Positions 2,973 to 33,109 of a stretch of DNA of 64,000 nt are shown here, piece after piece. A program made the position numbers and the translations under genes. Numbering within the stretch: the first letter of the stretch is position 1; every line of letters starts with the position of its first letter. The notes beneath the pieces were generated by a model. It had not been told where the DNA came from, did no database searches, and was given only the letters and a program-made list of their open reading frames with translations. Origin of the DNA: Elusimicrobiota bacterium (GTDB taxonomy: Bacteria > Elusimicrobiota > Elusimicrobia > UBA1565 > UBA9628); NCBI GenBank assembly GCA_016209035.1, contig JACQWX010000076.1, positions 1 to 64,000 on the forward strand, in the 5' to 3' direction.

Positions 2973-4825
2973 ACCACGAATACCGCCTTCGGCTTGCACA
3001 CGTCGACGCAGACGCCGCAGCGGATGCACTTGTCCGAGTCGATCTTGTGAGGCTTCTTGATCTCGCCCGTGACCGCTTGGACCGGGCACTGCTTGAGGCA
3101 GATCAGGCACCCGATGCACTTCTCGGCATCGATCACGTACTGGATGAGGGCCTTGCAGACCCCGGCGGGGCACCGCTTGTCCTTGATGTGGGCCTCGTAT
3201 TCCCTGCGGAAGTACCGCAGGGTGCTCAGGACCGGGTTCGGGGCGGTCTGGCCGAGCCCGCAGAGCGACGCGTCCTTGACGACATGGGCGAGCTCCTCGA
3301 TCAGATCGAGGTCGCCCTCGGAGCCCTTGCCCTCGCTGATCCTCTCCACGATCTCGTAGAGCCTAGCAGTGCCCTCGCGGCAGGAGAGGCACCTGCCGCA
3401 GGACTCGTCCCGCAGGAAGTTGAGGAAGTATTTGGACACGTCCACCATGCAGGTGGCGTCGTCCATCACGATCATGCCCCCCGACCCCATGATCGAGCCG
3501 GCCTTGCTCAAGCTCTCATAGTCGATGGGAAGATCCAGAAGATGCCTCGGGATGCATCCCCCGCTCGGGCCCCCGGTCTGGATGGCCTTGAAGTCCCCTC
3601 CTCCCTTGATCCCTCCGCCGATATCGTACACGATCTCCCTGAGGGTGGCTCCCATGGGGACCTCGACTAGGCCGGTGTTGTTGACCTTCCCCACGAGAGA
3701 GAATATCTTGGTCCCCTTGCTCCCCTCGGTCCCGATCTTGGAATACCAGCTGGCTCCCCTATTGACGATCAATGGGATGTTGGCCCAGGTTTCGACGTTG
3801 TTGATGTTGGTGGGCTTTCCCCACAGGCCCTTCGAGGTCGGGAAGGGAGGGCGCTGCCTGGGCTCGCCCTTCCTCCCTTCGACGGAGGCGATAAGACCCG
3901 TTTCCTCGCCGCAGACGAAGGCCCCGGCCCCCCTCTCGATCTCGATATCGAAGGAGAACTTCGACCCGAGGATGTTCTTTCCGAGAATCCCGCGCTGCCT
4001 GGCCTGGTCCAAGGCGATCCTCAGATTGCCGACCGCCAAAGGATACTCGGTTCTCACGTAGACGAATCCCCTCCGGGCTCCGATGGCGTACGCCCCGATC
4101 ATCATGCCCTCGATGACGGAATGGGGGTTGCCCTCGAGGACGCTCCTATCCATGTACGCGCCGGGGTCTCCTTCGTCCCCGTTGCAGATTATGTGCTTGT
4201 CGTCGCCCTTGGCCCTGCGGCAGAACTCCCACTTGAATCCCGTGGGGAAGCCCGCTCCTCCGCGCCCCCGAAGCCCCGATTTCTTCACCTCCTCGATCAC
4301 CGCCTCCGGGGTCATCTGCGTCAAGGCCTTGACCAGGGCCCCGTAGCCTTCGAGAGCGATGTAGTCGCCTATCCGCGTGGGATCGATCAGCCTGTTCTGG
4401 GCCAGAATCCTGCGGCGCTGCTTCTTATAGAACGGGATTTCGCCCTCGCTGAGTATCTTGTCCCCGCTCATCAGATCCGCGTAGAGAAGACGATCGAGGA
4501 TGTTGTTCTTGATGACGGTCTCACCGACGATCTCCGCCGCGTCGGAGGGCTTCACCCTCTCGTAAAAGATCTCCTTGGGGGTGACCACGACGACCGGCCC
4601 GTGCTCGCAAAAGCCGTGGCACCCGGTCGCCTTGACATCGACCTTCCCTTTGAGCCCCTGCTTGGCGACTTCAGACTCCATGGCCTCTATCAGGAGCGCG
4701 GATTCGGAAGCCCGGCAGCCCGTGCCGCCGCAAACGCTGATGCAGATCCTCTTTGGGTCCCGTTCGGCCAGTAGGGATACCTTCAGTTTCGCCAAGTCGG
4801 CTGGGTTCTTGAGCGCCTTGATCAT
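2969..4825 (-). CDS. NuoF/HydB-like NAD(P)H-oxidising flavoprotein with ferredoxin tail
   Basis: 618 residues in three parts. First is a thioredoxin-like [2Fe-2S] domain (ICISVCGGTGC and TGCHGFCEHGP). Next is the NuoF core with the NADH/FMN site (GRGGAGFPTGFKWEF and GDEGDPGAYMDRS) and the N3-type cluster motif ESCGRCLSCREGT. Last is a 2x[4Fe-4S] ferredoxin tail (CIGCLICLKQCP and CIRCGVCVDVC). This N- and C-terminal decoration is typical of HydB of bifurcating hydrogenases and of related transhydrogenases, not of the NuoF of complex I. No hydrogenase subunit is nearby. Starts 3 bases after the zinc-ribbon gene and overlaps the Fe-S gene as ATGA. Confidence 0.93.
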   Translation of the reverse strand: MIKALKNPADLAKLKVSLLAERDPKRICISVCGGTGCRASESALLIEAMESEVAKQGLKGKVDVKATGCHGFCEHGPVVVVTPKEIFYERVKPSDAAEIVGETVIKNNILDRLLYADLMSGDKILSEGEIPFYKKQRRRILAQNRLIDPTRIGDYIALEGYGALVKALTQMTPEAVIEEVKKSGLRGRGGAGFPTGFKWEFCRRAKGDDKHIICNGDEGDPGAYMDRSVLEGNPHSVIEGMMIGAYAIGARRGFVYVRTEYPLAVGNLRIALDQARQRGILGKNILGSKFSFDIEIERGAGAFVCGEETGLIASVEGRKGEPRQRPPFPTSKGLWGKPTNINNVETWANIPLIVNRGASWYSKIGTEGSKGTKIFSLVGKVNNTGLVEVPMGATLREIVYDIGGGIKGGGDFKAIQTGGPSGGCIPRHLLDLPIDYESLSKAGSIMGSGGMIVMDDATCMVDVSKYFLNFLRDESCGRCLSCREGTARLYEIVERISEGKGSEGDLDLIEELAHVVKDASLCGLGQTAPNPVLSTLRYFRREYEAHIKDKRCPAGVCKALIQYVIDAEKCIGCLICLKQCPVQAVTGEIKKPHKIDSDKCIRCGVCVDVCKPKAVFVV

Positions 4826-4828
4826 GGT

Positions 4829-5233
4829 TTATGGTTTAAAGAACACGGAATACCTTTCATAGAATGTCCGGACCTCGAGTTCCGGATCCTCGAACTCGAT
4901 GAGATGCTTCTTACAACCGCGCCGTGAGCAGATCTGGATCGTGCCTCCCTCCTTGAAAGAGAAAGCCACCATGGGAGCCTTGCACACCTCGCACATGCGG
5001 CTCGCCTTGAGATCACACTTGCAGTGGGGGCAGAAGAAGCGCGAGATCTTGCCCACGGGGCACGGCACCTTGATGTCGATGTTGTAGCTGCCGTAGAGCG
5101 AGCTCAGCCGCAGGGGCCCCCGCTTCTTGCCGTAGGAGATCTCGACCGCGATGGACGGGCAGTTGTCGACCTTGTGCTCTTCGTCCATCAAGGACTTCCC
5201 GCAGACCGGGCACTGCACGTGGACTTGGATCAT
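4829..5233 (-). CDS. Zinc-ribbon-like protein of unknown function inside the redox operon
   Basis: 134 residues with at least five Cys pairs or Cys-rich knots: CPVCGK near the start, then PCP, FCPHCKCDLKASRMCEVC, and ICSRRGCKKH near the end. The spacing suggests zinc ribbons rather than Fe-S ferredoxin clusters. The rest is beta-rich and has no membrane segment. I do not recognise a named family. It overlaps the NuoE-like stop as ATGA and precedes the NuoF-like start by 3 bases, so it is co-translated with them. It may be a structural or assembly subunit; that role is inferred from position only. Confidence 0.75.
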   Translation of the reverse strand: MIQVHVQCPVCGKSLMDEEHKVDNCPSIAVEISYGKKRGPLRLSSLYGSYNIDIKVPCPVGKISRFFCPHCKCDLKASRMCEVCKAPMVAFSFKEGGTIQICSRRGCKKHLIEFEDPELEVRTFYERYSVFFKP

Positions 5234-26857: not shown

Positions 26858-28005
26858 TGGGCAGGCTCAAGGTCGTCCATGTCATCACCCGCATGGACCT
26901 CGGCGGCGCCCAGGGCAACACCCTGTACACGGCCAGGCACCTCGACCCTGCGAAGTTCGACTGCGTCGTCGCCGTCGGCCCGGGCGGAGTCCTCGACGAG
27001 GACTTGCTCTCGCGCGCCCCGCCCAGGACGGTCTTCGTCCCGGGCCTGGTGCGCGAGATCCGACCCTTGCGCGACCTCGGGGCCATCTGGCGGCTCTGGC
27101 GGCTCTTCCGCGCCGAGCGCCCGGACATCGTGCATACGCACAGCTCCAAGGCCGGCATCCTGGGCAGGGTCGCGGCCCGGCTTGCCGGCGTCCGGGCGGT
27201 CGTCCACACCTACCACGGCTTCGGCTTCCACGACCTCATGCCTGCCTGGCGCAAGTGGCTCTATGTCCAGGCCGAGCGGCTGGCATGCCGCCTGACCCAC
27301 CGCGTGGTCTTCGTGTCGAACGCCAACGTCGACTACGCCCGGCGCCACGGGCTCATCAAGCACGGCCGGGAAACCCTCATACGCTCTGGTGTCAAGCTGG
27401 GGGACTTTCCAGCAAGGCTTGCCGACCGGCAAGCCTTGCTTTCTTCGGTCGGTCTTCCCGGGAAGAAGCTCCTTGTCACTTCCATCGGGAACCTCAAGCC
27501 CCAGAAGAACCCTCATGACTTCCTCTCCCTCGCGAGCAGGCTCGCGAGGGAGTTCAAGGACGCCGGGTTCCTTTTCGTCGGCGAAGGCCCGCTGCGCCCG
27601 GAGCTGGACCAGCGCGTCGGCGACGCCCCCGGCTCCTTGTCCCTGCCCGGCTGGCGGTTGGATGTCCCGCAGATCCTGGCCGCGAGCGACGTCTTCGTCC
27701 TGACCTCGCTGTGGGAAGGCCTGCCGCGGACCCTGGTCGAGGCCATGGCCACGGGGCTGGCCTGCGCGTGCTACGAGACCGACGGCGTCAAGGACCTCCT
27801 GCGGGACGCCGAGAACGGCTGCCTCGTCCCCAAAGGCAGCCTGCCCTTGCTGATCGAGCGGGTGCGAGGGCTCCTTCAGGACGCGGATTCAAGACGCCGC
27901 TTGGGGGAGAACGCCCGCCGCAGCGTCTCGACCGAGTTCGACATAGACCTCATGGTGCGCCGGCAGGAAGAGCTCTACTGCGAGCTGTTGCGGCCCAGCC
28001 GATAA
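26857..28005 (+). CDS. GT4-family glycosyltransferase
   Basis: 382 residues, GT-B fold. The N-terminal acceptor domain has VHVITRMDLGGAQGNTL and DIVHTHSSKAGILGRVAARL. The C-terminal nucleotide-sugar domain has TSIGNLKPQKNPHDFL, VGEGPLRPEL and the EX7E-like SLWEGLPRTLVEAMATG. It transfers a sugar during polysaccharide or glycoconjugate synthesis at the inner membrane; the sugar is not predictable. The start is GTG 26857, one base inside the SpoIID stop. Two perfect palindromes lie within the gene (27411-27440 and 27525-27552). Confidence 0.9.
   Translation: MGRLKVVHVITRMDLGGAQGNTLYTARHLDPAKFDCVVAVGPGGVLDEDLLSRAPPRTVFVPGLVREIRPLRDLGAIWRLWRLFRAERPDIVHTHSSKAGILGRVAARLAGVRAVVHTYHGFGFHDLMPAWRKWLYVQAERLACRLTHRVVFVSNANVDYARRHGLIKHGRETLIRSGVKLGDFPARLADRQALLSSVGLPGKKLLVTSIGNLKPQKNPHDFLSLASRLAREFKDAGFLFVGEGPLRPELDQRVGDAPGSLSLPGWRLDVPQILAASDVFVLTSLWEGLPRTLVEAMATGLACACYETDGVKDLLRDAENGCLVPKGSLPLLIERVRGLLQDADSRRRLGENARRSVSTEFDIDLMVRRQEELYCELLRPSR
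27411..27440 (+). repeat. Intragenic perfect palindrome (13-4-13)
   Basis: AGCAAGGCTTGCC, 4-base loop, GGCAAGCCTTGCT inside the GT4 gene. The arm carries the same GCAAGG/CCTTGC theme as the intergenic hairpins at 28038 and 35623. Confidence 0.75.
27525..27552 (+). repeat. Intragenic perfect palindrome (13-2-13)
   Basis: CTCCCTCGCGAGC, 2-base loop, GCTCGCGAGGGAG, 84 bases after the first palindrome in the GT4 gene. Confidence 0.75.
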
Positions 28006-28037
28006 AGGAGCGCGCAAGCCTGCTGGCGGCAACGACA

Positions 28038-28066
28038 GCGCGGCAAGGGGAGACCCCTTGCCGCGC
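28038..28066 (+). terminator. Strong hairpin after the GT4 operon
   Basis: A perfect 13-bp stem (GCGCGGCAAGGGG / CCCCTTGCCGCGC) with 3-base loop AGA, 33 bases after the GT4 stop. The sequence after it (TCGCCTTTCT) is only weakly T-rich. It marks the end of the high-GC operon; the low-GC island starts just after. Positions 28067-28166 hold no gene. Confidence 0.6.
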
Positions 28067-28166
28067 TCGCCTTTCTGGCAGCCCCAAACCTGTTTCATGG
28101 CAAGCTGGCGCTGGAATTCCTCGACCGCTCGAGAAAATATGAGGATGTAATTTCTGACGCATTCAC

Positions 28167-28874
28167 ATGCGCTTTCCCCGATTCCTGGAGTGGCGATTGG
28201 ATAGGCGGAGGGAACTTTTCGAGGTGGTCAATCGTATACTAGGTATGCTATCCTCTCTTCCAGAGATGGCCCGCCGCCCCAACCAGACTTTCAGGGAAGA
28301 AGTCTTCAACGTCACTCTAGCTGAGTTGCTCTCAGCCTATGGCCTTGAGGCCAGTCCCGAAACCATCTGGAGAGAAGGCCGCCCAGATGTCTTGGTCAAC
28401 ATGGGCGGCATCAAGGTCGTGCTCGAAGGCCGTTTCTCAAATCTAGATGACTTGCTCAAGACGACGCGTGAACGGGTGAACGAAGGGCTCGCCGACATTG
28501 GAATGGCCGTCGTCTATCCACCGGATTTGCAGGATGCCAGGACACTGGAGCAGATCAGGGACAAGTTCAAGCGCGTCAAGTTCAGCGGGGCTCTGTGCAA
28601 TATCGGCCATGGTTCGAAAACCGAGAGTTTTGAGAATGCCGGCATCGCCGACTTGGTGCAGCTGATCAATTCGACCTTGTCGTTGATGGTCAAGGACGCG
28701 ACCATCAAGGAGGCCGTTTCGTGCACAGAGTCTTCCCTCAAGCGCATTGTGCATAGGGCGTCCACGACAGGCCTCTTCTTCCGGTCCGACGTATTGGTAC
28801 ATCGCCTTAGACGCACTCTTGGGATATCCGATGCCGACCAAGGCAGCAAGACCTCCAACGACAGAGAAGACTGA
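28167..28874 (+). CDS. PD-(D/E)xK-like nuclease-fold protein of the restriction-modification island
   Basis: 235 residues. After a helical N-terminus, WREGRPDVLVNMGGIKVVLE followed by GRFS fits the PD-(D/E)xK pattern: Asp in GRPDVLV and Glu-x-Arg in LEGRF, with Arg where Lys is usual. The segment RERVNEGLADIGMAVVYPPD follows. Base composition is clearly lower in GC than the flanks. It overlaps the methyltransferase gene by 44 bases. It is probably the first subunit of a restriction-type defence system. The catalytic assignment is tentative because of the Arg. Confidence 0.6.
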   Translation: MRFPRFLEWRLDRRRELFEVVNRILGMLSSLPEMARRPNQTFREEVFNVTLAELLSAYGLEASPETIWREGRPDVLVNMGGIKVVLEGRFSNLDDLLKTTRERVNEGLADIGMAVVYPPDLQDARTLEQIRDKFKRVKFSGALCNIGHGSKTESFENAGIADLVQLINSTLSLMVKDATIKEAVSCTESSLKRIVHRASTTGLFFRSDVLVHRLRRTLGISDADQGSKTSNDRED

Positions 28875-31107
28875 TCCGGAGCTTCTGCGCGTCGCCACCT
28901 TCATCATTTTCGACGCGCTGATCTTCCACCAATCGCTCTCCGCGGCGAACGCGAGAGTCGCCCCGCTGTCCCGCCTGCGGGCTCCCTATCGCCGCGCACT
29001 CCTGTCGGAATGGGAAAACATCCTTAGAATCGACTATCGGGAAGTCTTCCAGATTGCCCGGGAAATACTGAGTGACTTTCCTGCCGCGCCCGAGACCGAG
29101 GAAATCCTCAAGGAAATCATCATTGCGGCCGATGACATCGTGTCATCTGGCATTCTTCGCAAACACGATTTTCTTGGCCGCATCTACCACAAGCTGCTCC
29201 TAAGAACGACTGGACACTTCTACGCCACATACTACACCAGCATCCCTGCGGCCTGGCTGCTGGCGCAGCTGGCTATTCGAACGGAGCATCCCGAGTGGCG
29301 ATTTGAAAGCATCGATCGATTGGCAGACTTCCGGATATTGGACCCCGCGTGCGGGTCGGGCACGTTGCTTTCCGCGAGCTATATGGCCCTGAGAGACAAT
29401 CTAATTCTCGCGGGCCCCAAAGCGCTTGACACCAGAGCCTTCCACAGATGGGCGATTGAGAAAGTGATTCATGGATGGGACGTTTTGGACTTTGCGGCAC
29501 ACTTATCTCTCACCACGCTGGCATTGCATCATCACGCGGAGTTTGGGCAATCCAATTTTCACGTCATGATTGCCGGCATAGACGAACATGGCGAGGTTCG
29601 TCTGGGGAGTCTGGACCACCTTTCTTCGCAGATTGCGCTGGTGGGCAGAAGCCTGGATTTTGGCGATGTCGCCTTGCGAACCGGGCTCGAGGTTCGGGAA
29701 CAAGCGCGCCTGGACTGCATAAAGGTGGACCTTGTTATCATGAATCCGCCTTTTTCACGAAGCGCTAACCCCAACGTCAAGTTTGGGTATAGCGATGCCA
29801 CCGCAAGGAAAAGGATGGTGGCAGCCCTCAAGAACATCACCAGGGACTTGGGGCTGGAAGGCATTGGACATGCGGGGCTAGGAGCTTACTTTGTCGTGCT
29901 CGCCGACAAGCTCCTCAAGGCCGGCGGCAGAATGGCCTTCGTTCTCCCAAGGGCACTGCTATCGGGCGTGTCCTGGGGCAAGATTCGGGAATTGCTGCGA
30001 GACAATTACGCCATCGAGTATGTCGTTTCTAATTACGATCCGGGGGAGAAGGAATCCGGAATCGAGCCTTGGAATTGGAGTGAGAATACCGATTTGGCGG
30101 AAGTGCTAGTCGTCGCCAGGAAGCTGCGTGATTCAAACGAGATCAAGTCGCCGCAGGGAGCGGTAGACAATTTGGTGACATATGTGGGACTTTGGAACAA
30201 GCCCCGGAACGAGGTCGAGAGCCTGCTGATCTCCCAACAGGTTCAGCAAAAGCGCAAGCGAATGGCGGAGGAGGACGCAGACCTGCTTCGGATTGCCGGG
30301 AAGAACATCGGCCATGTACTAAGGATTGGGCAGGACAAATTGCGGCTTAATTGGCTTTACCCATCGATCTTTGCCAATCCGACTCTGAATCTGCTCCTGA
30401 TCCGCCTGCTTAACGGAAGTCTGCATGCGGTGAGGATGCGCGATCTTGCGAGCAGCACCGGCACAGACATCAAACAAATCAAGGACGCCTTCAAGCACGC
30501 GTCCTCGGCAACCCCGCATCGCTTGTTGTGGGGGCAACAGGCGTCCATGGCAACGCTTTTTCTCGCTAAGGATGCTATTGGCTTCGGACTTGCACAGCAA
30601 GGAACGAAGTCCGAACTGCTGCACAGGTCGAGGAAATCTAGTGTCCTGATTTCTGAACGCCCGCACCTCAGCAACGACTGTGTCATCGCCGTGGAAACTG
30701 AGATTCCCGTCCTGGCAACCGCCTTTTGGGAAATTCAGCTCAATGATGAAAAGATCAAGCCAGTGGTCTTGACATGGCTTAACTCAACGCCGGGATTGCT
30801 GTGCTACTTGGGAATCAGCACCAACAGTATGGGAGAGATCTTCAAGACCAAGAAAGACCAGCTTGACCATCTGCTGATTCCCAATCCCGACACACTAGAT
30901 TTGGATGAATGGAGACATTTCTACGGCCGGATTAAGAGTCAACCGCTGCTGCAATTCCCCGCTGAGTTCGAGCTTGCGGCGTCGGGCAACGGCCTGCGCA
31001 TGCAGATTGATGACTTTGTGTTGAAATCATTGGGTCTGAGGATGGATATTGCTTCATATTATGCTCTACTGGCAAAGGAACCAGTCTTCTCTCTGCAGCG
31101 GCTCTAG
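28831..31107 (+). CDS. N6-adenine DNA methyltransferase of type I/IIG style
   Basis: 758 residues. SAM-binding motif I is DFRILDPACGSGTLLSASYM and the catalytic motif IV is LVIMNPPFSR (NPPF, adenine-N6 class). GHAGLGAYFVVLADKLLKAGG followed by MAFVLPRALLSG is typical of HsdM/IIG enzymes. The 350-residue C-terminal part resembles a target-recognition module (VLTWLNSTPGLLCYLGIS). No helicase domain. The start ATG 28831 was chosen over an upstream TTG. The lower GC of this gene and its neighbours suggests horizontal transfer. Confidence 0.88.
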   Translation: MPTKAARPPTTEKTDPELLRVATFIIFDALIFHQSLSAANARVAPLSRLRAPYRRALLSEWENILRIDYREVFQIAREILSDFPAAPETEEILKEIIIAADDIVSSGILRKHDFLGRIYHKLLLRTTGHFYATYYTSIPAAWLLAQLAIRTEHPEWRFESIDRLADFRILDPACGSGTLLSASYMALRDNLILAGPKALDTRAFHRWAIEKVIHGWDVLDFAAHLSLTTLALHHHAEFGQSNFHVMIAGIDEHGEVRLGSLDHLSSQIALVGRSLDFGDVALRTGLEVREQARLDCIKVDLVIMNPPFSRSANPNVKFGYSDATARKRMVAALKNITRDLGLEGIGHAGLGAYFVVLADKLLKAGGRMAFVLPRALLSGVSWGKIRELLRDNYAIEYVVSNYDPGEKESGIEPWNWSENTDLAEVLVVARKLRDSNEIKSPQGAVDNLVTYVGLWNKPRNEVESLLISQQVQQKRKRMAEEDADLLRIAGKNIGHVLRIGQDKLRLNWLYPSIFANPTLNLLLIRLLNGSLHAVRMRDLASSTGTDIKQIKDAFKHASSATPHRLLWGQQASMATLFLAKDAIGFGLAQQGTKSELLHRSRKSSVLISERPHLSNDCVIAVETEIPVLATAFWEIQLNDEKIKPVVLTWLNSTPGLLCYLGISTNSMGEIFKTKKDQLDHLLIPNPDTLDLDEWRHFYGRIKSQPLLQFPAEFELAASGNGLRMQIDDFVLKSLGLRMDIASYYALLAKEPVFSLQRL

Positions 31108-31136
31108 AGCTGTCCCCAGGTCTTCCTAGGTCCAGC

Positions 31137-32126
31137 ATGGGCACTTGGATTCCGGGACCGGCCCTCTCGCTGCTCAGACAGGTGGGGCTAAGTGCCTCGG
31201 AAGTCTACATTGCAACGGCATTCTACTCCGCGAGTCCTCTAGCTTGGCTGGGCCGCGAAATAGCAGCTCGGAAGGTCACCATAGGCGTACGCCTGGATTT
31301 TCATGACCAGGCAGACTGGATTCGCGGTTACATCGATCCGCCCGCTCTGACATCGTTTGTTCGCGGGCTGCAAGATCGAGGCGTCATCGTAAACCTTTAC
31401 ACATCACCCGAGGCTCACGCCAAGGTCTTTGTCGGAAATCGAGGGGCAATCATCGGTAGCGCTAATTTGACGACCCGGGGGTTTGGGGCAGGAGCAGAGA
31501 TGGTGTGTCTTGTTGGCGCAGATCAGGTATCGCTTGCCCGATCGGCCGTAAAGCGATATCTCCGCAACCTAAGGAAGACGAGTCTGACGGAAATCGAGAC
31601 CTTCGTGCTGAAACATTGGGATGCAGTACGCCGCGCCCGGAAGGCTGCGCATGGGGAGCGACGTCCCGCGGGAGAAGACCGCCTTCCCAAAGCACGTTTC
31701 GGCGGACGGCATTTGATGGCCGGGGACTATGACGATTTCTTGCGTTGGCTGCGCAGACAGCGAGTTCGGGCTGCCCATGTCATTCTAGCACGGGCAAGAG
31801 GAGAAGGGAATCTGCAAGGCCATATTCGCAGGAACTTCTCCGGACTACGGCAATTCTTGATTGCGAGCCCCGGACGGCAATTCGCTTTGCGGGGGGAAGA
31901 CCCGGATGCATTTCGACTCTTCTCGGATAGCGAACTGACGCGGGACATGCTTCACTTTGTCAGGGACAACGCCGCCGACGAAACGGACTTCGTTCTCGAC
32001 ATTTGGAGGACCTACTTGCCAATCGAGTGCGGCGGTAGGGCTCGCAAGCGGGGAGGGACGATCGGGAATCTTAATCGCATGTTGCCCCTCATGGCCAGAT
32101 ATTTGAGTTCCCGGGGATCGGTGTAG
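31137..32126 (+). CDS. Phospholipase-D-like nuclease
   Basis: 329 residues. One HKD-type half-site is visible: EAHAKVFVGNRGAIIGSANL followed by TTRGF, with the usual Asp after HxK replaced by Asn. A single half-site implies that a dimer forms the active centre, as in BfiI and Nuc. The N-terminus (VYIATAFYSASPLAWLGREI) also fits PLD nucleases. The C-terminal half has no family I recognise. It lies 29 bases after the methyltransferase and shares its lower GC, so it is the third part of the island. It ends 8 bases before the GT2 gene. Confidence 0.8.
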   Translation: MGTWIPGPALSLLRQVGLSASEVYIATAFYSASPLAWLGREIAARKVTIGVRLDFHDQADWIRGYIDPPALTSFVRGLQDRGVIVNLYTSPEAHAKVFVGNRGAIIGSANLTTRGFGAGAEMVCLVGADQVSLARSAVKRYLRNLRKTSLTEIETFVLKHWDAVRRARKAAHGERRPAGEDRLPKARFGGRHLMAGDYDDFLRWLRRQRVRAAHVILARARGEGNLQGHIRRNFSGLRQFLIASPGRQFALRGEDPDAFRLFSDSELTRDMLHFVRDNAADETDFVLDIWRTYLPIECGGRARKRGGTIGNLNRMLPLMARYLSSRGSV

Positions 32127-32134
32127 ACAAGGCA

Positions 32135-33109
32135 ATGGCGGAACATCCATCACCCTGCAGGCTCAGCGTCATCGTTCCGGTCTACAACGAGGAGGACTGC
32201 CTCGACCGGCTCTCCGACGAGATATCGGCCGCCCTCGAAGGGGTGGAAGGGACCCACGAGGTCATCCTAATCGACGACGGGTCCACGGACCGCTCCTTCG
32301 ACATCGTCGCCGAGCTGGCGAACAGCCGTCCCGGCTTCGTGGGCCTCCGCCTGGGACGGAACGCCGGGCAGACCGCGGCCTTGTCCGCAGGCATCGCCGA
32401 GGCCAGGGGGGAGTTCATCGTCTGCCTCGACGCCGACCTCCAGAACGACCCGCGGGACATCAAGACCCTGCTAGACAAGATGTCCGAGGGCTACGATGTG
32501 GTCAGCGGCTGGCGCAAGGACCGGCAGGACCCCTGGCTCACGCGCCGCCTGCCCTCTCAGACTGCGAACTGGCTCATCTCCCGGATCACCGGGGTGCGCC
32601 TGCACGACTACGGGTGCACCCTGAAGGCCTATCGCAGCTCCTATCTCAAGCCCTTGCGCCTCTACGGCGAGATGCACCGGTTCATCCCGGCCCTGGCGGG
32701 TTTCCTGGGCGCGAGGATCGCGGAGGTCCCGGTGCGCCACCACGCCCGGACCCTCGGGCGGTCCAAGTACGGACTCTCCAGGACCTTCAAGGTCCTGCTC
32801 GACCTTCTGACCGTCAAGTTCATGTCCGCGTACATGGCGAAACCCATCTACCTCTTCGGGGGATGGGGATTGGCGGCGGGGCTCCTGGGACTGGCCCTGG
32901 CATCCTATACCCTCTACAAGAAGTTGTTCCTTGGCGTGTTCGTCAAGGACCAGCCCCTGTTCCAGGTCTCCATCTTCCTTGGCCTGGTCGGGGTCCAGAT
33001 GATCCTGATGGGCCTGCTCGCGGAGATCCTCATCCGGGTGTACTTCGACATCAAGGACAAGAAGGCCTATTTCGTCAAAGACCTGGTCGGCCGTCCTCCC
33101 TTGACTTAA
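32135..33109 (+). CDS. GT2 glycosyltransferase (polyprenyl-phosphate sugar transferase type)
   Basis: 324 residues. The GT-A domain has SVIVPVYNEEDCLDRLSDEI, the acidic VILIDDGSTDRSF and the DxD-like CLDADLQNDP, followed by HRFIPALAGFLGARIAEVPV. Two C-terminal membrane helices follow (LFGGWGLAAGLLGLALASYT and FLGLVGVQMILMGLLAEILI). This is the DPM1/ArnC/GtrB architecture, which loads a sugar onto undecaprenyl phosphate. High GC returns here, so it belongs to the native chromosome, as does the GT4 gene on the other side of the island. Confidence 0.92.
   Translation: MAEHPSPCRLSVIVPVYNEEDCLDRLSDEISAALEGVEGTHEVILIDDGSTDRSFDIVAELANSRPGFVGLRLGRNAGQTAALSAGIAEARGEFIVCLDADLQNDPRDIKTLLDKMSEGYDVVSGWRKDRQDPWLTRRLPSQTANWLISRITGVRLHDYGCTLKAYRSSYLKPLRLYGEMHRFIPALAGFLGARIAEVPVRHHARTLGRSKYGLSRTFKVLLDLLTVKFMSAYMAKPIYLFGGWGLAAGLLGLALASYTLYKKLFLGVFVKDQPLFQVSIFLGLVGVQMILMGLLAEILIRVYFDIKDKKAYFVKDLVGRPPLT

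What the first reader, a model, noticed from the sequence alone, without database searches (positions are those of the whole stretch)
28067..32126. Three-gene low-GC island: PD-(D/E)xK-like protein, N6-adenine methyltransferase and PLD nuclease, with no helicase
Seen: three same-strand genes with visibly lower GC sit between two high-GC glycosyltransferase genes. They encode a GRPDVLV...LEGR nuclease-fold protein, an NPPF adenine methyltransferase with a C-terminal recognition-like region, and a single-HKD PLD-family protein. Known: PLD nucleases and methyltransferases meet in DISARM and in BfiI-like systems, but DISARM needs DrmA/DrmB helicases and type I systems need HsdR. Inference: a compact restriction-modification-like defence system with two different nuclease folds and no motor, possibly not described.
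Basis: partly seen in the sequence, partly recalled or inferred. Interest (0 to 1): 0.75.

Follow-up and report, generated by a model that had tools for sequence, protein, structure and literature searches.

The report
Split Type IIG-like enzyme beside PLD gene
A small imported gene block encodes a two-piece version of a well-known kind of restriction-modification enzyme (a DNA-cutting piece plus an adenine-methylating, site-recognising piece), followed by an apparently unrelated nuclease-like gene; the enzyme pair recurs across many microbes but the three-gene combination was found only here.

Summary
In detail: three same-strand genes with low GC (GC3 0.60-0.69; flanking genes about 0.89) sit between two glycosyltransferase genes, exactly where two relatives lack them. 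P1 has a predicted PD-(D/E)xK nuclease fold and conserved motif. P2 is a gamma-class N6-adenine methyltransferase with a C-terminal recognition-like half. P3 has one HKD (PLD) motif. There is no helicase.

P1 and P2 are one system: in most of 92 related loci from bacteria, archaea, phages and plasmids they form one chain of about 950 residues, nuclease-methyltransferase-recognition, the layout of Type IIG restriction-modification enzymes. About 25 relatives split them as here, often with 1-4 nt gene overlaps. Such enzymes need no motor, so the missing helicase is expected.

The PLD gene was next to none of the 92 loci. No full-length P3 relative turned up in phages, plasmids or about 1,400 genomes. 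P3 therefore looks like a passenger in the same insertion, or at best a local add-on.

Verdict: a naturally split, Type IIG-like enzyme, a variant of a known kind, plus an unrelated PLD nuclease-like gene. Activity is inferred, and P1 has Arg at the usual catalytic Lys/Glu position. Interest is modest.

The parts
28070..32134 (.). Foreign low-GC block inserted between a conserved hairpin and the GT2 start codon; holds only P1, P2 and P3
   Evidence: GC/GC3; comparison with a same-genus genome and a same-family genome, where GT1 and GT2 flank an isocitrate dehydrogenase gene instead
28028..28069 (+). Terminator-like hairpin of the host locus marking the left edge of the block; 93% identical stretch directly before GT2 in the same-genus genome
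28167..28874 (+). P1: 235-aa PD-(D/E)xK nuclease-fold protein, the separate R subunit. Motif N48, E65, P73-D74, E87-x-R89, R103
   Evidence: 89-sequence alignment; [quoted passage not shown] Foldseek to Hjc resolvases, E 1.9e-4
28831..31107 (+). P2: 758-aa gamma-class N6-adenine methyltransferase (DPACGSG, NPPF) with C-terminal recognition-like region (about residues 440-758), the M~S subunit; its ATG overlaps P1 by 44 nt
   Evidence: AlphaFold2 pLDDT 82.4, pTM 0.86; Foldseek to CamA, BpuSI (Type IIG), PglX/BrxX, M.BseCI, DrdV
31137..32126 (+). P3: 329-aa single-HKD phospholipase-D-superfamily protein (HAKVFVGN...GSANLT...E) with unassigned C-terminal half; 29 nt after P2; not a conserved partner
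   Evidence: no neighbour of this kind in 92 P1/P2 loci; no full-length relative found

Best explanation
P1 and P2 are the two subunits of a split, Type IIG-like restriction-modification enzyme. Inferred mechanism: P2 binds a specific sequence through its C-terminal region and, with AdoMet, methylates an adenine at N6 on host DNA; P1, the PD-(D/E)xK endonuclease normally fused to P2's N-terminus, docks on P2 and cuts unmethylated DNA near the site, without ATP or a motor. Shown: the folds (predicted), the conserved motifs, the fused homologues, the recurring split pairs with overlapping genes, and acquisition as a foreign block. Inferred: docking, methylation, cleavage and defence. P3 is a separate PLD-superfamily (BfiI/DrmC/DpdK-like) nuclease-like gene carried in the same insertion, not a required third subunit.
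For: P1+P2 are one polypeptide (947-971 aa) on Aminobacter and Sulfuricystis plasmids, and fused chains occur in 56 of 84 tree rows; 26 are split and 2 unknown. In split relatives P1 lies directly upstream of P2; ten distinct loci have a 4-nt and two a 1-nt overlap. Motif: D74 and E87 in 89/89, N48 and E65 in 88/89, position 89 K in 49 and E in 35. P1 model: PD-(D/E)xK topology; top Foldseek matches Hjc, then SSO0001, lambda exonuclease and RecU. P2 model: gamma-class methyltransferases including Type IIG BpuSI and DrdV. The annotated phage relative, Halorubrum virus HSTV-4 gp37, is labelled 'type IIG restriction modification enzyme'. No conserved third neighbour. Type IIG definition: PMC3874165, PMC4081073.
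Against: P1 has Arg at the usual catalytic Lys/Glu position, shared only with the nearest relative L028 among 89 sequences. P1's top structural matches have low TM-scores on the query (about 0.3) and moderate ones on the target (about 0.5), and no family HMM hits P1. The two nearest relatives, L028 and L029, are fused, so the split here could be a recent frameshift. No activity, specificity or subunit contact was measured. P3 is 29 nt downstream with similar GC3 and sits in the same insertion, so co-function cannot be excluded.
Confidence: 0.72

Rival explanations
1. The three genes form one system: P2 marks self DNA and two nucleases of different folds, P1 and P3, attack unmarked DNA without a motor.
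For: P3 is co-directional, 29 nt after P2, in the same insertion with similar GC3. PLD nucleases and methyltransferases do co-occur in BfiI, CglI/NgoAVII and DISARM.
Against: No PLD-type ORF at 92 related P1/P2 loci; the family works as one or two genes in every other context seen; the only P3-like hits elsewhere are unlinked to a methyltransferase.
Confidence: 0.12
2. P1 is inactive or only structural, and P2 works as a solitary epigenetic adenine methyltransferase like CamA.
For: Arg replaces the usual Lys/Glu at P1 position 89; the best structural matches of P2 are the orphan methyltransferase CamA.
Against: D74, E87, N48, E65 and R103 are kept, which would not be expected if selection on the nuclease were lost long ago; L028, with the same Arg, keeps an intact fused chain; P1 is retained as an intact ORF.
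Confidence: 0.18
3. P1/P2 is a single fused gene broken by a recent one-base indel (or an assembly error), i.e. a decaying Type IIG gene rather than a true two-gene form.
For: The two nearest relatives are fused; the overlap here is 44 nt, unlike the 1-4 nt overlaps of many split relatives; no obvious ribosome-binding site before ATG 28831 (sequence inspection).
Against: Both ORFs are otherwise intact with the conserved residues; no long homopolymer in the overlap that would favour a sequencing error; recurrent natural splits in the family show two chains are viable.
Confidence: 0.2

Closest known systems
Type IIG restriction-modification enzymes (BpuSI, Eco57I, MmeI, DrdV; annotated viral relative HSTV-4 gp37)
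   Same: Nuclease-methyltransferase-recognition order; gamma-class N6-adenine methyltransferase; no motor or ATPase; P2 model matches BpuSI and DrdV; a homologue is annotated as Type IIG
   Different: The cleavage domain is a separate polypeptide here and in about 25 relatives, whereas the textbook form has it permanently fused at the N-terminus (PMC3874165); P1 matched no Type IIG HMM
HVO_A0006 of Haloferax volcanii (PMC4389544)
   Different: Described as a fragment flanked by transposition genes; here the methyltransferase partner gene is adjacent. Homology of P1 to HVO_A0006 itself was not tested
CamA and PglX/BrxX adenine methyltransferases
   Same: Overall fold of P2, gamma-class N6 methyltransferase with C-terminal recognition region
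   Different: CamA is an orphan without a nuclease; PglX belongs to multi-gene BREX; P2 scores far below the BREX models
BfiI and CglI/NgoAVII PLD-nuclease restriction systems
   Same: P3 has the single HxK...N...E PLD motif; weak NgoFVII match
   Different: No B3 DNA-binding domain found in P3, no cognate C5 methyltransferase, no DEAD-family N-protein
DISARM
   Same: An N6 methyltransferase and a DrmC-like PLD protein are both present
   Different: DrmA and DrmB absent; DrmMI and DrmC scores are marginal; a separate PD-(D/E)xK protein instead

Membership tests
Type IIG restriction-modification | DNA-cleavage domain and gamma-class methyltransferase in one protein chain | tested here: not met
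   P1 and P2 are separate, overlapping ORFs in the window; fused in 56 of 84 relatives. Filed as a split variant that works like Type IIG, not as a standard member
Type IIG restriction-modification | N-terminal (here upstream) nuclease domain | tested here: met
   PD-(D/E)xK fold and motif in P1
Type IIG restriction-modification | Gamma-class N6-adenine methyltransferase motifs and fold | tested here: met
   PF02384, DPACGSG and NPPF motifs, Foldseek
Type IIG restriction-modification | C-terminal or separate sequence-specificity module | tested here: inconclusive
   C-terminal region aligned with CamA, M.BseCI and BpuSI structures over most of the length, but no recognition-domain family scored
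Type IIG restriction-modification | AdoMet-stimulated cleavage at a fixed distance, no ATP | not testable with these tools
   Needs biochemistry; no motor gene is present in the block
DISARM | DrmA and DrmB proteins (helicase and DUF1998) | tested here: not met
   None in the block; neighbours of related loci show no conserved helicase
CglI/NgoAVII (PLD nuclease + helicase + C5 methyltransferase) | DEAD-family ATPase partner and C5 methyltransferase | tested here: not met
   Absent; P2 is an N6-adenine enzyme
BfiI-like PLD restriction enzymes | PLD HxK catalytic domain plus C-terminal B3 DNA-binding domain | tested here: inconclusive
   HxK...GSxN...E present in P3; no B3 match for the C-terminal half, and P3's structure was not predicted
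BREX (PglX) | PglX full-length model with other brx genes nearby | tested here: not met
   Marginal scores of 11-16 bits against cut-offs of 400-900; no such genes in the block

The most novel reading that the evidence does not exclude
The three genes act as one motorless restriction-modification system in which a split Type IIG-like enzyme has recruited a second, metal-independent PLD nuclease as an extra effector.
Probability: 0.1. Interest if true: 0.6.

Novelty: new variant of a known kind. Interest (0 to 1): 0.33.

Why it matters
[quoted passage not shown] A phylum-spanning family with fused and split forms, the split ones often with overlapping genes, is a natural experiment on how restriction and modification activities come apart and rejoin, which is a proposed step between Type I and Type IIG enzymes (PMC6158711). 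A separate nuclease subunit could be lost, regulated or exchanged independently of methylation. The case also shows that a striking three-gene block can be a known two-part enzyme plus a passenger.

Tried and rejected
DISARM, CglI/NgoAVII, BREX and BfiI memberships: helicase, C5 methyltransferase, B3 or Brx partners absent or undetected. Conserved third partner: neighbour clustering, PADLOC and Pfam tallies of 103 neighbouring proteins, and a PLD-motif scan of 92 loci gave none. L028's downstream gene has a weak Lamassu LmuA match (E 1.2e-5) and L007's downstream gene looked DUF3800-like by eye but matched no Pfam family; neither recurs. P3 relatives: none in phages, plasmids or viral contigs, none in the phylum sample and two other phylum samples; single weak hits in a carrier genome (L144) and one other genome (L156) are lone PLD genes unlinked to a methyltransferase. 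One search was an uninformative pattern search. Flanking direct repeats or a tRNA as an integration signature: none convincing.

Full report
Observation. Window 28167-32126 holds three + strand genes, P1 (235 aa), P2 (758 aa from ATG 28831) and P3 (329 aa), between a GT4 and a GT2 glycosyltransferase gene. GC falls to 0.53-0.58 against 0.61-0.74 around it, and GC3 is 0.69, 0.65 and 0.60 against 0.90 and 0.89 in the flanking genes. In a same-genus and a same-family genome the two glycosyltransferase genes flank an isocitrate dehydrogenase gene instead. In the same-genus genome a hairpin directly precedes the GT2 start codon; in the window the same hairpin (about 28028-28069) is followed by the three genes and then GT2. 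The block is therefore best read as a foreign insertion that contains just these three genes. The isocitrate dehydrogenase gene of this genome lies on another contig, C8.

P1. No family model matches P1 alone. Its homologues, 89 sequences, keep N48 (88), E65 (88), D74 (89), E87 (89) and R103 (88); two residues after E87 they have K (49), E (35), R (2), S (2) or D (1). AlphaFold2 with 54 sequences gave pLDDT 83.8 and the element order helix 44-57, strands 61-64, 75-79 and 82-89, helix 93-105, strand 111-116, which is the PD-(D/E)xK core. Foldseek's best PDB matches are Hjc Holliday-junction resolvases (E 1.9e-4, probability 1.00), followed by SSO0001, tRNA-splicing endonuclease, lambda exonuclease and RecU. 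The D-x12-E-x-K spacing resembles that of Hjc (from memory). The window and its nearest relative L028 have Arg at the third position, which leaves activity uncertain.

P2. Pfam N6_Mtase E 2.6e-9, motifs DPACGSG and NPPF. The model (pLDDT 82.4, pTM 0.86) matches CamA (E 2.9e-16), Type IIG BpuSI (1.5e-15), BrxX/PglX, M.BseCI and DrdV over most of its length: gamma-class methyltransferases with a C-terminal recognition region.

P1 and P2 belong together. On the Aminobacter pUSP4 and Sulfuricystis pSTJ1 plasmids the two are one chain of 947 and 971 residues. One scan of genome contigs and one of viral contigs gave 96 loci. The tree of 84 methyltransferase sequences has 56 fused, 26 split (the window included) and 2 undetermined; it needs 9 changes of the split label, 6 of them forced by well-supported branches. 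In split relatives P1 lies directly upstream of P2; ten distinct loci have a 4-nt and two a 1-nt overlap. The family occurs in Chloroflexota, Pseudomonadota, Acidobacteriota, Bathyarchaeota, Caldisericota and others, on plasmids, and in phage contigs beside terminase or portal-like genes. The annotated virus relative, HSTV-4 gp37, is called a Type IIG restriction modification enzyme.

P3. One H-x-K...GSxN...E motif; PLDc_2 E 2.1e-5 and NgoFVII 0.0069, both below Pfam's cut-offs; DpdK and DrmC PADLOC hits of about 1e-5. A PLD-motif scan found P3 in the window but nothing at 92 other P1/P2 loci. P3 gave no hit in plasmids, phages or viral contigs, none in 248 phylum genomes other than its own, none in samples of 399 and 376 genomes of two other phyla, and one partial hit in 380 genomes of a third; that gene is solitary among phosphate-transport-like genes. 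Among 39 genomes carrying P1/P2 there was one weak, unlinked PLD hit. The searches have limits: single-sequence queries miss divergent relatives, the PLD scan used a fixed motif, and only the 80 best of 347 genome loci were inspected.

Neighbours. Clustering of 815 neighbouring ORFs and PADLOC/Pfam scans of 103 nearest neighbours found no recurring partner, helicase or PLD protein; only 18 of 90 loci have a same-strand gene within 60 nt downstream.

Mechanism. Type IIG enzymes are gamma-class methyltransferases with an N-terminal cleavage domain, both using one recognition module, and they need no motor (PMC3874165, PMC4081073). P1+P2 match that plan in two pieces. The likely working is: P2 recognises a site and methylates adenine; P1 docked on it cuts unmethylated DNA. 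These activities are inferred. Because the nearest relatives are fused and the overlap here is 44 nt, the split in this genome may have arisen by a recent frameshift; in either case the nuclease and methyltransferase are now separate reading frames.

Known precedents. Free-standing Type IIG nuclease fragments are known (HVO_A0006, PMC4389544), and Type I/IIG fusion and fission has been proposed and tested by engineering (PMC6158711). In the reviews read here I found no description of a recurring split form with overlapping genes, but REBASE could not be searched and only parts of the papers were read, so the novelty claim is limited to 'variant of a known kind'.

Noticed in passing
window 28005-32135; G000:C8:24291-25646; L139, L140: In a same-genus and a same-family genome an isocitrate dehydrogenase gene sits between the two glycosyltransferase genes; in this genome it is on another contig while the hairpin remains before the insertion. 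The locus was rearranged as well as invaded.
   Followed up: partly
L007:8282-9052 (Methanothermobacter tenebrarum plasmid pRMAS01): A fused archaeal homologue is followed closely by a gene that looks DUF3800-like (RNase H-like) by eye; no Pfam match was found. It may be a different local add-on.
   Followed up: partly
L028:8412-9314: The nearest relative's fused gene is followed by a protein with a weak match to the Lamassu effector LmuA (E 1.2e-5), and a viperin-like gene lies upstream (4425-5135).
   Followed up: partly
L008, L009, L010, L016: Members of the family sit in phage or prophage contigs next to terminase or portal-like genes, so viruses carry these restriction-modification enzymes themselves.
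   Followed up: no
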